Shown here in pieces: positions 9,938-13,820 of a stretch of 22,646 nt of DNA (its first letter is position 1; the number at the start of each line of letters is the position of its first letter). This DNA is from a virus. A program made the translations under genes and the position numbers. The stretch is from IMG/VR virus record IMGVR_UViG_3300017775_000010, positions 1 through 22,646 of that record; one strand, given 5' to 3'. The notes under the pieces were generated by a model, which saw only the letters and a program-made list of their open reading frames with translations, did no database searches and was not told the DNA's origin.

Positions 9938-10555
9938 TTAACCTATTATATCTATCAAACCAAGCTTAAGTGCTTCTTCTGCAGTTAAGAACAAATCTGT
10001 TCTTGTATTTTCTTTCCACCAAGCCGAATCTTTTTTTGTAGATTCTTCTAGTAGTGATAAACAATTTTCTTCCATCTTTTTATATTGTTTTGCAGAAGCT
10101 TGTATATCTGAGCTTTTTCCAATTTGTTTTGCGGAAGCTTCATGAAGCATAATTGTTGAATGTTTGCTACAAATTCTAGAACCTGTTGTGCATCCTAAAA
10201 TTACTGCAGCTGCACTCATTGCTTGCCCTCTAACAATAACATTTACCTTTACCTTTAATGACTTTATATAGTCTATAATACCAAACATCTCAAACATACA
10301 TCCCCCACTAGAATTTATAACTATTGTTATTGGTTCCTTTGCCTTTTCTTTTGGTCTTTCTCTTAATATTATTCTACATCTTGTCACTAAGTCGTATAGT
10401 GTAAACTCACCAATTTCACCTATCATATAAATTATACTATCATTAATATTCATGCTATTAAATATTTCTGAATATTGGTCCTTTGCTGTGTCTTGTACAG
10501 TAGTCTCTGGGGTAGCTATTGCCCTTTCGGGTTTATCATCATATACTTTTTTCAT
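9938..10555 (-). CDS. ClpP-like serine protease
   Basis: This 205-residue protein has the ClpP catalytic set: S114 in GQAMSAAAVILG, H138 in STIMLHEAS and D187 in NTRTDLFLTAEEALKLGLID, plus an oxyanion-type NSSGG at 81-85. Length matches bacterial ClpP (about 200). The ATG at 10555 lies one base after the upstream stop; a TTG three codons earlier is possible. ClpP forms barrels fed by AAA+ unfoldases such as ClpX, which are not in this window, so it would need a host partner or one elsewhere in the genome. Phage ClpP-like proteins can also be capsid-maturation proteases; here it is not next to capsid genes. It shares the window with a tmRNA that adds a ClpXP-type tag. Confidence 0.9.
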   Translation of the reverse strand: MKKVYDDKPERAIATPETTVQDTAKDQYSEIFNSMNINDSIIYMIGEIGEFTLYDLVTRCRIILRERPKEKAKEPITIVINSSGGCMFEMFGIIDYIKSLKVKVNVIVRGQAMSAAAVILGCTTGSRICSKHSTIMLHEASAKQIGKSSDIQASAKQYKKMEENCLSLLEESTKKDSAWWKENTRTDLFLTAEEALKLGLIDIIG

Positions 10556-10556
10556 A

Positions 10557-10778
10557 TTAGTCAAATAAAAGCTTTAATTGTCTTTTGTCTTCTTCGTGTT
10601 TGTTGTCTTTTGGTTTTGGAAATGCATTTTTAACACTACTATCTGCATAGCCTAGTGACTTAGCCATCCTTACACAGATATTTCTAAATTCAAATGCTGT
10701 TAAGTTATTTCCAATTTCAAAATTTATCTTTTGAGGCTCCTTTGTGCCGTCTCCTCTTATGTAAGTCAATTTATCCAT
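10557..10778 (-). CDS. Small soluble protein upstream of the ClpP-like gene
   Basis: This is a 73-residue protein with a lysine-rich C-terminus (PKPKDNKHEEDKRQLKLLFD) and no membrane segment. The ATG at 10778 has AGGAG nine bases upstream, and a candidate promoter sits at 10815-10849, so this may be the first gene of the protease-oxygenase-HD transcript. I do not recognise a family. Confidence 0.75.
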   Translation of the reverse strand: MDKLTYIRGDGTKEPQKINFEIGNNLTAFEFRNICVRMAKSLGYADSSVKNAFPKPKDNKHEEDKRQLKLLFD

Positions 10779-10849: not shown

Positions 10850-11380
10850 TTCGCGGTATTTTTGAATTATTTCTTGAGATATCTTTCCATTTATTATTCT
10901 ACTATAGAATTTAATCTCTTTCATTATAACCTTTTTGTCTTTTTTCCATCTAGCCTTTGCAAGTTGCTTTTTAAGCCTATGTACTTGAACGCTAGCTCTT
11001 CTTTTTATATCTTCTTTTTGTTTTGGTTTTAATCTAAGTCTTTCTTTTACTTTGGTTGGTGAGAGTGTACCTTTAAGCTTAACTTGTTCTATGCCCTTAT
11101 AAAATACCCTACCATCTTTGTGTACAAATTCCTTCATCCACCTCCAACCCCTATGAAAACCAGAGGGACCCTTTGTCTGACTTTCGGGGCCTCCAAATTG
11201 TGCATTCATAGATTCACCAATACAATCTGAACATGTTATGGCTGTTGTTTCTTCACCAGCCTCTGTCATCTGGCCGCACAACCTACACTCCATATACCTA
11301 TATAGTGAATCTTTATTTTGATTCCACTTAGAACCTTTTCTAAATTCTGTTGAGTATTCTATTTTATTTTCATTTTTCAA
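10829..11380 (-). CDS. Zinc-ribbon protein with basic helical C-terminus
   Basis: The protein has a C-x2-C pair (CRLCG) and a second C-x2-C (CSDC) about 17 residues later, a four-cysteine zinc ribbon. The C-terminal half is very basic and helical (LRLKPKQKEDIKRRASVQVH, KKQLAKARWKKDKKVIMKEI), which suggests nucleic-acid binding. I choose TTG at 11380 because GAGGTGA lies about 8 bases upstream; a GTG at 11392 would sit right on that site. Both starts overlap the upstream membrane-protein gene. Length is 183 residues. The family is unknown; a transcription or packaging accessory would fit but is not shown. Confidence 0.75.
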   Translation of the reverse strand: MKNENKIEYSTEFRKGSKWNQNKDSLYRYMECRLCGQMTEAGEETTAITCSDCIGESMNAQFGGPESQTKGPSGFHRGWRWMKEFVHKDGRVFYKGIEQVKLKGTLSPTKVKERLRLKPKQKEDIKRRASVQVHRLKKQLAKARWKKDKKVIMKEIKFYSRIINGKISQEIIQKYREGNFLVS

Positions 11381-12431
11381 AGCCTGTATCACCTCTAAAT
11401 ATATCTTTGCCGTGCTTATCTTTTGTCATACCTTTAGCTATCCATTCTTCTATTTTTTTTACTCTACCCTCACCATAAATATCTGATTTATCTACTGATG
11501 TATCTACTGATGTATCTTCCTCTACATTATTTTCTTTATTGGACACAATATTGGTTGGGGGTTTGGCATCATGAGTTCGTAGTGTTGGTTCTTTTTTATT
11601 TATCTTTATTTTTCGCGGTCTTAAATCTGGTCTTTTTATTTGAGAAAAAGCCATATTAGTAGCTACTACAAGTGCTATAGCGAGTGGGTCAAATACAAAT
11701 ACAATTAAAAGCAAAAAATAATTAACAACTTTGTCCATAGACCAACCAGTTGTCTTTGCCAGGTACTTAAGTGGACCTAATTCTCTTTGGTCTTCATTAG
11801 ATATTTCTTTTTCTAGTAAAGCTATATCAGTTGTTGTAATTGAATCTAATATAGCTTCTAATTTTATACTAAGATTATCCCTATCTGCAATTGTAGTTTT
11901 TAGTTCTGCTTGTAACGCTCTTCTTGCTGAGCTGGATGATGATGTGATTACTGTTTCAGAATTTTTATCATACCATGATACTGAATGTGGGTTAGATAAT
12001 GATGTTCTTAAATCTGAGATTGATTGATTTATTTGAGTCTTCTCAAGTGTTAAGTCTTCTTTCGTTTCTTGAAACCTAATTTGTTTTTGGCTAAGGATTG
12101 CAAGTGACTTGTCAAGTAGTTCCGACTGAGTTGCAGTTGATTGATAAGCTCCAGATAAAAATCCATATATGCCCCCTGATGTTATTATCATTAAAACAAA
12201 ACATGCAACACCTAAATAAAATCTTAAGAACTTATTTATAGTATCCCAATATTGATATAATAAAGATGCTACTACTAATTTAGCAAACTCTAATGAGCCA
12301 GCCATTATTATCACCTCTGTACTGGCTCCTGCAAATAACTTACTTAAGCCAAATACTGAATAGAAGGCTGCAGATGCTGACACTAAAAGTGCCGATACTA
12401 AAATCAACAAGGGAAATAATATTCTTTTCAT
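11370..12431 (-). CDS. Multi-pass membrane protein with central coiled coil
   Basis: This 353-residue protein has membrane segments at about residues 4-25, 38-60 and 70-95, then a helical coiled-coil region rich in Gln, Ser and Glu (about 100-210), and another membrane segment at about 234-258 (VNYFLLLIVFVFDPLAIALV). The tail after 260 is basic then acidic and contains an imperfect repeat (DTSVDTSVDKSD). Similar large membrane proteins with DUF4407-like layout occur in marine T4-like phages, and their role is not known. It may act at the host envelope. It is preceded by two small genes in the same operon. Confidence 0.82.
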   Translation of the reverse strand: MKRILFPLLILVSALLVSASAAFYSVFGLSKLFAGASTEVIIMAGSLEFAKLVVASLLYQYWDTINKFLRFYLGVACFVLMIITSGGIYGFLSGAYQSTATQSELLDKSLAILSQKQIRFQETKEDLTLEKTQINQSISDLRTSLSNPHSVSWYDKNSETVITSSSSSARRALQAELKTTIADRDNLSIKLEAILDSITTTDIALLEKEISNEDQRELGPLKYLAKTTGWSMDKVVNYFLLLIVFVFDPLAIALVVATNMAFSQIKRPDLRPRKIKINKKEPTLRTHDAKPPTNIVSNKENNVEEDTSVDTSVDKSDIYGEGRVKKIEEWIAKGMTKDKHGKDIFRGDTGFEK

Positions 12432-13300: not shown

Positions 13301-13380
13301 ATCTTATTCCTTTAAAATTTACCAACCATCCTCCGGGCTTTTACGACAAAGGCCCCATTATACCGTCCGGGTCAAGGAGC

Positions 13381-13413
13381 CTAAGCTGCCATCGCCATTT
13401 CAACTGATTCGCC
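13381..13413 (-). other. tmRNA tag-peptide reading frame ending AMAA
   Basis: The frame GGC GAA TCA GTT GAA ATG GCG ATG GCA GCT TAG encodes GESVEMAMAA and a stop. The C-terminal A-x-A-A matches known proteolysis tags (ALAA, AVAA), where the last residues are read by ClpX. The exact resume codon is uncertain: the frame stays open upstream through CGT-GTA-ACT, so the tag may be one to three residues longer. Confidence 0.8.
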
Positions 13414-13468
13414 AGTTACACGTGACCTCCCTATACCCTTATCTTGCTGTCAATTCCAAAACACCCCC

Positions 13469-13488
13469 ATATCGTAAATATGTTTTAG
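13469..13488 (-). other. tmRNA intervening spacer removed in maturation
   Basis: These 20 bases lie between the discriminator A and the first G of the acceptor stem. Five bases on each side of a TTACG loop pair (CATAT with ATATG, the last G being part of the acceptor run). This caps the acceptor stem in the precursor. In known two-piece tmRNAs this loop is cut out by host RNases. Confidence 0.75.
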
Positions 13489-13538
13489 TGGAGGTGACGG
13501 GATTCGAACCCGTGTCCAAACAAGCAGCTAATATAAGT

Positions 13539-13820
13539 CTAACGGCCATTTTTCTTTAGTTTAACTAATATAGCACATCTTTCATACCATTCCATTTCTG
13601 TATAGTGTTCAATTAGTGTGTCAATTACTTCAGTGAAGTTTACATTTTCACTATATGGGTTAAATGGTAATGCAACTCTATTAGCATCTTCTTCAAATAG
13701 TGATTCAAATGTATCACTGCCCGTAAGAATGTTATATGCATTCTCCATTGCATTATTTACTAATTCAAGTTCATTAGTTTCAAATTTACTATTTTCAAAT
13801 AGGCTATCCATTCCTTCCAT
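13539..13820 (-). CDS. Small acidic protein directly upstream of the tmRNA
   Basis: This is a 93-residue acidic protein (many Glu and Asn) with no membrane segment. The ATG at 13820 follows AAAGGA. Its stop codon touches the first bases of the tmRNA acceptor piece, so the two probably share a transcript and must be separated by processing. Within the gene a TGTGCTATATT stretch near 13568-13578 could be a -10 element for the tmRNA itself. The family is unknown. Confidence 0.75.
   Translation of the reverse strand: MEGMDSLFENSKFETNELELVNNAMENAYNILTGSDTFESLFEEDANRVALPFNPYSENVNFTEVIDTLIEHYTEMEWYERCAILVKLKKNGR

What the first reader, a model, noticed from the sequence alone, without database searches (positions are those of the whole stretch)
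13325..13540. Phage-borne circularly permuted tmRNA
The tRNA-like 3' part precedes the 5' part, joined by a 20-base spacer. A seven-pair acceptor stem and helix P2 form only across the permutation, and a tag frame ends in AMAA. tmRNAs are known in a few phages (for example phage G), but a permuted, two-piece form in a T4-like phage is, as far as I know, little described. It may have been taken from an alphaproteobacterial or cyanobacterial host.
Basis: partly seen in the sequence, partly recalled or inferred. Interest (0 to 1): 0.9.

Follow-up and report, generated by a model that had tools for sequence, protein, structure and literature searches.

The report
Two-piece tmRNA in Bacteroidota phages
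This marine phage carries a rearranged, two-piece ribosome-rescue RNA (tmRNA) that is conserved across dozens of related phages that appear to infect Bacteroidota, a bacterial group whose own tmRNAs, where seen here, are the ordinary one-piece kind.

Summary
Minus strand 13547-13331 encodes a circularly permuted tmRNA: the acceptor piece lies first, then a 20-base spacer, then the coding piece with tag GESVEMAMAA. It matches Rfam RF04321 (tmRNA_permuted) at 63 bits (gathering score 47). I found 66 distinct family members, nearly all in marine viral contigs. In 58 of them the acceptor, T, three P2-type and post-tag pseudoknot helices are kept by many compensating changes (256 double-change cells against 72 in shuffles).

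The interpretation needs changing. Two-piece tmRNAs in phages, mostly marine, were already reported in 2022. The proposed alphaproteobacterial or cyanobacterial source is not supported. The phage clade groups with a Flavobacterium phage. Relatives carry T9SS-sorted proteins, and nearly all recognisable signal peptides follow the Bacteroidetes "Q-rule". The tag has the Gly-Glu start and Ala-Ala end of Bacteroidota tags. The Bacteroidota-type tmRNAs I retrieved are one-piece, and three other Bacteroidota-phage records also carry permuted genes.

I found no description of this lineage. Whether the permutation arose independently is unresolved by my tree. One sub-branch has 36-37-residue tags.

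Most likely function: a host-SmpB-dependent, phage-supplied ribosome-rescue RNA, processed by tRNA enzymes. Verdict: new variant of a known kind.

The parts
13331..13547 (-). Permuted tmRNA gene, from the distal P2 helix to the end of the P5-like helix after the tag
   Evidence: RF04321 63 bits; 66 distinct family members; covariation
13486..13547 (-). Acceptor piece (3' half of the tRNA-like domain, encoded first). Its extreme 5' end is not known
13497..13513 (-). T arm ACGGG-TTCGAAT-CCCGT
   Evidence: helix 4: 100% of cells paired, 2 of 5 pairs with double changes
13490..13496 (-). Acceptor stem, 3' strand CACCTCC; discriminator A at 13489, then CTA, so no encoded CCA
   Evidence: helix 5: 58 of 58 sequences paired; pair 59-93 is CG 31, UA 22, GC 4, UG 1
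13469..13488 (-). Intervening spacer, 20 nt, expected to be cut out
   Evidence: relatives hold a whole tRNA here (L077, cr114_1)
13462..13468 (-). Acceptor stem, 5' strand GGGGGTG; expected RNase P-made 5' end at 13468
13441..13447 (-). P2 proximal helix, coding-piece strand, paired with 13525-13520
   Evidence: helix 3: 4 of 6 pairs with double changes
13431..13436 (-). P2 middle helix, coding-piece strand, paired with 13536-13531
   Evidence: helix 2: 4 of 7 pairs with double changes
13424..13427 (-). P2 distal helix GGTC, paired with 13547-13544 (GGCC)
   Evidence: helix 1: 100% of cells paired, 3 of 4 pairs with double changes
13401..13418 (-). Resume hairpin TAACT-(GGCGAATC)-AGTTG; the resume codon GGC (13413-13411) is in its loop
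   Evidence: helix 6: 99.7% of cells paired; one pair with a double change (AACA..TGTT in L133, L134, L145)
13381..13413 (-). Tag reading frame GESVEMAMAA and stop TAG
   Evidence: same frame and the same AMAA end in relatives
13331..13379 (-). P5-like helix CTCC/GGAG (13379-13376 with 13334-13331) enclosing an H-type pseudoknot: ACGGT 13366-13362 with 13347-13343; GGGC 13355-13352 with 13338-13335
   Evidence: helices 7 and 8 (99.3% and 79.9% paired; 2 and 5 pairs with double changes). The CTCC/GGAG helix was read by eye and not counted

Best explanation
A functional, phage-encoded, circularly permuted tmRNA gene. The precursor folds so that its two halves form one tRNA-like domain across a short spacer. 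Host RNase P (5' end at 13468) and a tRNA 3' nuclease with CCA-adding enzyme (after 13489) remove the spacer, leaving two RNAs held together by the acceptor and the three-part P2 helix. Host alanyl-tRNA synthetase charges it through the G3.U70 pair. Host SmpB brings it to ribosomes stalled on cut or damaged mRNA during infection. Translation resumes at GGC and adds GESVEMAMAA, whose AMAA end marks the product for host (or phage) ClpXP-type proteolysis. The phage belongs to an uncultured myovirus clade that infects Bacteroidota. Shown here: architecture, conservation, covariation, tag frame, clade and host signatures, and absence of a phage SmpB in the searched records. Inferred: expression, processing, charging, and the benefit to the phage.
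For: Rfam hit above cut-off. 58-sequence alignment with strong covariation in the acceptor, T, P2 and pseudoknot helices. Invariant G.U at the alanine identity position (column pair 61-91, 58 of 58). All relatives with enough upstream sequence share the permuted order. Tags always end AMAA, or LMAA in L128; L177 is cut by its contig end. A transcription-like context in many relatives: ATATTTATA motif upstream of 42 of 64, and terminator-like hairpins after some. A tRNA in the spacer of two genes, consistent with processing by tRNA enzymes. Host evidence: T9SS sorting domains in four family contigs and in immuto; Q directly after the hydrophobic run of nearly all signal peptides (rule); terminase and GroEL near Flavobacterium phage immuto. 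One-piece Bacteroidota-type tmRNAs with GENNYALAA and GEYNYAMAA. No SmpB in 15 records.
Against: No RNA or protein data. The host was not observed, and the T9SS, Q-rule and bS21 evidence comes from clade mates, not from the window itself. Shine-Dalgarno motifs are clearly enriched in the clade, which is unusual for Bacteroidota, although phage-encoded bS21 may explain it. The usual PK1 upstream of the tag is missing, so efficiency is unknown. CCA is not encoded (CTA), so CCA addition is needed.
Confidence: 0.9

Rival explanations
1. The gene descends from the known permuted lineages (alphaproteobacterial or cyanobacterial, or a marine-phage branch of them). It moved between phages and only its tag segment was converted to the Bacteroidota style.
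For: 'All permuted genes monophyletic' is not rejected (AU p = 0.18). L205 lies in a phage with a 60%-identical terminase but carries an ANDNFALAA tag, so tags do change within the clade. ANDNFALAA-type genes such as L021 and L049, and L005, also lack PK1 and an encoded CCA.
Against: Placing the family only with the alpha/cyano-type permuted genes is weakly rejected (AU p = 0.044). Sequence just upstream of the T arm matches standard Bacteroidota tmRNA closely (ATTAGCTGCTTGTTTGGAC against TTTAGTTGCTTGTTTGGAC in L116). The alpha and cyano models score below cut-off.
Confidence: 0.4
2. A decayed or decoy tmRNA that titrates host SmpB or blocks host trans-translation, like the tRNA-like-domain-only gene of mycobacteriophage DS6A.
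For: DS6A's short form inhibits host tmRNA. Phages without their own SmpB would compete for the host's.
Against: Full tag frame, stop codon, G3.U70 and pseudoknot are all conserved and covary. A decoy would not need the tag.
Confidence: 0.08
3. A chance fold or a tRNA-gene fragment.
For: ARAGORN misses it in the window.
Against: E 2.9e-10; 66 distinct family members; covariation far above both controls.
Confidence: 0.01

Closest known systems
Two-piece (permuted) tmRNA of phage Melnitz, pelagimyophages and other marine phages (PMC9004378)
   Same: Phage-borne, permuted, two-piece, marine myoviruses, no phage SmpB reported in the passages read
   Different: Those were assigned to alphaproteobacterial or cyanobacterial-type lineages and hosts. 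Here the tag and phage clade are Bacteroidota-type, and the family is separate
Rfam RF04321 tmRNA_permuted (merged alpha, beta and cyano families; PMC11915505)
   Same: Order of segments, tRNA-like domain, above the gathering score
   Different: Below the curated scores of the alpha and cyano models; no PK1; resume hairpin; Gly-Glu tag
Standard one-piece Bacteroidota tmRNA (tag GENNYALAA or GEYNYAMAA; L114-L120, L217)
   Same: AACTGGCGAA around the resume codon, TTGACAGC D region, sequence next to the T arm, no encoded CCA
   Different: One-piece order, longer, with PK1 and further pseudoknots
Permuted tmRNAs of Chryseobacterium phage MA9V-3, Maribacter phage Panino and crAss-like phage cr114_1
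   Same: Permuted, tag starting with Gly, Bacteroidota phages; all above RF04321's cut-off
   Different: Longer tags (13-17 residues), longer spacers (one holds a tRNA), unrelated sequence in the P2 strand; annotated only as 'SsrA'

Membership tests
Permuted (two-piece) tmRNA | tRNA-like 3' part encoded before the 5' part, forming one acceptor stem | tested here: met
Permuted (two-piece) tmRNA | G3.U70 pair and A73 for alanine charging | tested here: met
   Present in the window (13466/13492, A13489); G.U pair in 58 of 58
Permuted (two-piece) tmRNA | Tag frame with resume codon, stop and hydrophobic -AA end | tested here: met
Permuted (two-piece) tmRNA | P2 helix across the permutation, kept by compensating changes | tested here: met
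   helices 1-3
Permuted (two-piece) tmRNA | Two pseudoknots flanking the tag (PK1, PK2), typical per PMC3985003 | tested here: not met
   One pseudoknot after the tag, with covariation; no room for PK1 before it (P2 ends at 13424, resume codon at 13413). PK1 is typical rather than strictly defining
Permuted (two-piece) tmRNA | Two separate mature RNAs in the cell | not testable with these tools
   Needs RNA-seq or Northern blots
alpha_tmRNA (RF01849) | Score above curated cut-off | tested here: not met
   33.2 bits against 50
cyano_tmRNA (RF01851) | Score above curated cut-off | tested here: not met
   41.4 bits against 70
beta_tmRNA (RF01850) | Score above curated cut-off | not tested
   No separate search was run

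The most novel reading that the evidence does not exclude
Phages of Bacteroidota hold a fourth, independently arisen lineage of permuted tmRNA, in a phylum where only one-piece tmRNA is described. Part of it has grown 36-37-residue tags (e.g. GKQVNTTIASIFASLSAIRSLSQETIVAKEQVFAMAA) that may do more than mark proteins for destruction.
Probability: 0.4. Interest if true: 0.75.

Novelty: new variant of a known kind. Interest (0 to 1): 0.6.

Why it matters
Permuted tmRNA has been treated as three bacterial lineages plus their phages and organelles. A large, covarying family in Bacteroidota phages, absent from the one-piece host-type genes seen here, offers a further case of the same rearrangement, possibly one that lives in viruses. 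It gives sequences for testing why phages bring their own ribosome-rescue RNA. In this clade the gene sits in genomes with other translation-takeover features: phage bS21 and Shine-Dalgarno motifs in a phylum that mostly lacks them.

Tried and rejected
Alpha or cyano origin: models below cut-off and host signatures disagree. An early working label 'SAR11-type' for the ANDNFALAA genes was dropped: their hosts are not established. A tree of 108 columns could not settle the origin; E. coli and an Enterococcus-phage tmRNA fell at odd places in it, so the domain holds little signal. dN/dS-like counts on the long tags show only weak constraint (pN/pS 0.31-1.35), so I do not claim that the peptide is under strong selection. 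In one search my regex mis-started tags for rows with ACTGGATTTGAC; one search supersedes it. Searches failed and were repeated. Paper searches for Bacteroidota-phage tmRNA found nothing relevant.

Full report
WHAT IS THERE. On the minus strand the Rfam model for permuted tmRNA (RF04321) matches 13546-13381 end to end, 63.0 bits against a curated cut-off of 47, E 2.9e-10 for the window. The standard tmRNA model catches only the acceptor half, 42.2 bits, below its cut-off. ARAGORN reports nothing in the window but calls a permuted tmRNA with tag GEQVEMAMAA in a close relative. Reading the sequence: distal P2 strand 13547-13544, middle P2 13536-13531, proximal P2 13525-13520, T arm 13513-13497, acceptor 3' strand 13496-13490, discriminator A 13489 followed by CTA, 20-nt spacer 13488-13469, acceptor 5' strand 13468-13462, the P2 partners 13447-13441, 13436-13431 and 13427-13424, resume codon GGC at 13413, tag GESVEMAMAA, stop 13383-13381. 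After the tag come an H-type pseudoknot and a P5-like helix.

IT IS MORE THAN CHANCE. Two pattern scans of IMG/VR for the acceptor-spacer-acceptor layout and one for the tag gave 66 distinct family members. Every member with enough upstream sequence has the permuted order. RNAalifold, given 58 of them and no structure, drew the T stem, acceptor, three P2 segments, resume hairpin and first pseudoknot stem: 47 pairs, 18 with changes on both sides. Counting a fixed structure: 96.9% of cells paired, 256 cells changed on both sides against a shuffled mean of 72 (none of 500 shuffles reached it), and 4-40 when the partner is slid by 1-3 columns. Examples: acceptor pair 59-93 is CG 31, UA 22, GC 4, UG 1, with none broken; P2 pair 31-115 is UA 27, CG 18, AU 12, UG 1, with none broken. 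The structure was partly drawn from the same alignment, so the slid control leans towards it; the double changes in the acceptor and P2 pairs do not depend on that.

WHO CARRIES IT. The window is a whole 22.6-kb IMG/VR record. Its gp6-like baseplate protein is 44-50% identical in 9 of 10 tested tmRNA-bearing contigs. The best cultured relatives of that protein are Microcystis phage Mel-JY01 and Flavobacterium phage immuto, neither of which has a permuted tmRNA match. The 170.8-kb relative G013 has a gp23-type capsid and a T4-type terminase; its terminase is 59% identical to Mel-JY01's and 55% to immuto's, and its GroEL is closest to immuto's. Four family contigs (G013, L091, L147, L176) and immuto carry proteins ending in a type IX secretion sorting domain. 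PMC5837995 describes T9SS as typical of Bacteroidetes, with possible occurrences in a few related phyla. Nearly all recognisable signal peptides in family contigs place glutamine at the first mature position (for example ...ANA|QEK...FMFG|QEV...SAIS|QTT, read from a heuristic list), which PMC5837995 gives as a Bacteroidetes feature. I therefore infer a Bacteroidota host. The window's own fragment shows none of these host markers.

THE TAG AND THE HOST TYPE. Standard one-piece Bacteroidota-type tmRNAs found in IMG/VR contigs have tags GENNYALAA (L114-L120; RF00023 130-153 bits) and GEYNYAMAA (L217). The window shares their AACTGGCGAA around the resume codon, TTGACAGC D region, 17 of 19 bases next to the T arm (against L116), and absence of encoded CCA. 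The assignment of L114-L120 to Bacteroidota rests on my knowledge of their tags. Permuted genes with Gly-start tags also occur in Chryseobacterium phage MA9V-3 and Maribacter phage Panino, both on named Bacteroidota hosts, and in crAss-like cr114_1. In cr114_1 (tRNA-His) and L077 (tRNA-Ala) a whole tRNA sits in the spacer, a natural hint that tRNA processing enzymes release the two pieces; the tRNA identities are read from the anticodons.

ORIGIN UNRESOLVED. The alpha and cyano models score 33.2 of 50 and 41.4 of 70 bits. A 108-column tree weakly rejects grouping the family only with alpha/cyano-type permuted genes (AU p 0.044) but does not reject one origin for all permuted genes (p 0.18) or a grouping with Bacteroidota standard genes (p 0.42). 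L205, from a phage with a 60%-identical terminase, has an ANDNFALAA tag, so tags switch within the clade. I give an independent Bacteroidota-phage permutation about 0.4.

HOW IT PROBABLY WORKS. Shown: conserved architecture, alanine identity pair, tag frame, pseudoknot, and no SmpB in 15 records (control genomes rang). Inferred: RNase P and a 3' nuclease cut out the spacer, CCA is added, host SmpB delivers the alanylated two-piece RNA to stalled ribosomes, and AMAA sends the product to ClpXP. Many relatives have an ATATTTATA motif just upstream (42 of 64), which also precedes G013's terminase and other genes on the coding strand (31 of 35 occurrences on that strand), so a phage-type promoter is likely; the window itself lacks it and has an ORF running into the gene.

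UNUSUAL FEATURES. There is no room for PK1 before the tag. The resume codon sits in the loop of a conserved hairpin (helix 6). A sub-branch (L126, L127, L128, L147, L174, L176; L177 cut by its contig end) has tags of 36-37 residues that keep the G..V/I start and the MAA end. Synonymous and non-synonymous rates differ little, so constraint on the added residues is weak. PMC11915505 gives 10 as the commonest tag length; I did not establish the longest known.

WHAT IS KNOWN. PMC9004378 already reported 53 two-piece tmRNAs in phage genomes, 50 from marine or aquatic samples, and Melnitz in detail. PMC11915505 merged the three known permuted lineages into RF04321 and lists 79 phage tmRNAs without lineage detail in the text I could read. 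I found no description of a Bacteroidota-phage lineage, but supplements and most subscription papers were out of reach. Filed as a new variant of a known kind.

Noticed in passing
L194-L202 (G013), window, family loci: Clear Shine-Dalgarno peak at -10 to -12 in the clade (G013: 50 motif starts at -11/-12 over 107 ORFs), while immuto shows none; and G013, G014, G032 and Mel-JY01 encode ribosomal protein bS21. In Bacteroidia bS21 helps hide the anti-SD (PMC9976891), and phage bS21 is proposed to redirect ribosomes (PMC9723584). SD-bearing phage genes plus phage bS21 fit that idea.
   Followed up: partly
L126, L127, L128, L147, L174, L176, L177: tmRNA tags of 36-37 residues with homologous helical-looking inserts between the GKQV-type start and MAA end.
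   Followed up: partly
L077, spacer of its permuted tmRNA (minus strand), and L062:545-616: A complete tRNA (Ala and His, read from anticodons) lies between the two pieces of a permuted tmRNA gene.
   Followed up: no
L194-L202 and family loci: Strand-biased ATATTTATA motif upstream of late-type genes (31 of 35 on the coding strand of G013), a likely promoter element of this clade; 42 of 64 tmRNA genes have it.
   Followed up: partly
window 9938-10564 (-): ClpP-family serine protease (PF00574, E 1.8e-31; PHROG head maturation protease) with GQAMSAA and MLHE motifs, a few kb downstream of the tmRNA.
   Followed up: no
window 11370-12431 (-): Unnamed membrane protein (AFYSVFGLSKLFAGAS) found downstream of the tmRNA in 32 of 66 family contigs, usually about 1 kb away; no Pfam, PHROG or NCBIfam match.
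   Followed up: partly
window 13539-13820 (-): The upstream ORF runs into the tmRNA: its stop codon (13541-13539) lies inside the acceptor piece, past the distal P2 strand.
   Followed up: no
L113 (CALBOT010000027.1): A contig of a Nitrosopelagicus (archaeal) MAG carries this phage tmRNA and is probably a misbinned phage contig; such binning could feed reports of archaeal tmRNA.
   Followed up: no
L205 (G028): A phage with a terminase of the same clade (60% identity) has a permuted tmRNA with an ANDNFALAA tag instead of a Gly-Glu tag.
   Followed up: partly
L062:21-188 (cr114_1): A RAGATH-9 RNA (153.7 bits) lies about 290 bases upstream of the permuted tmRNA.
   Followed up: no
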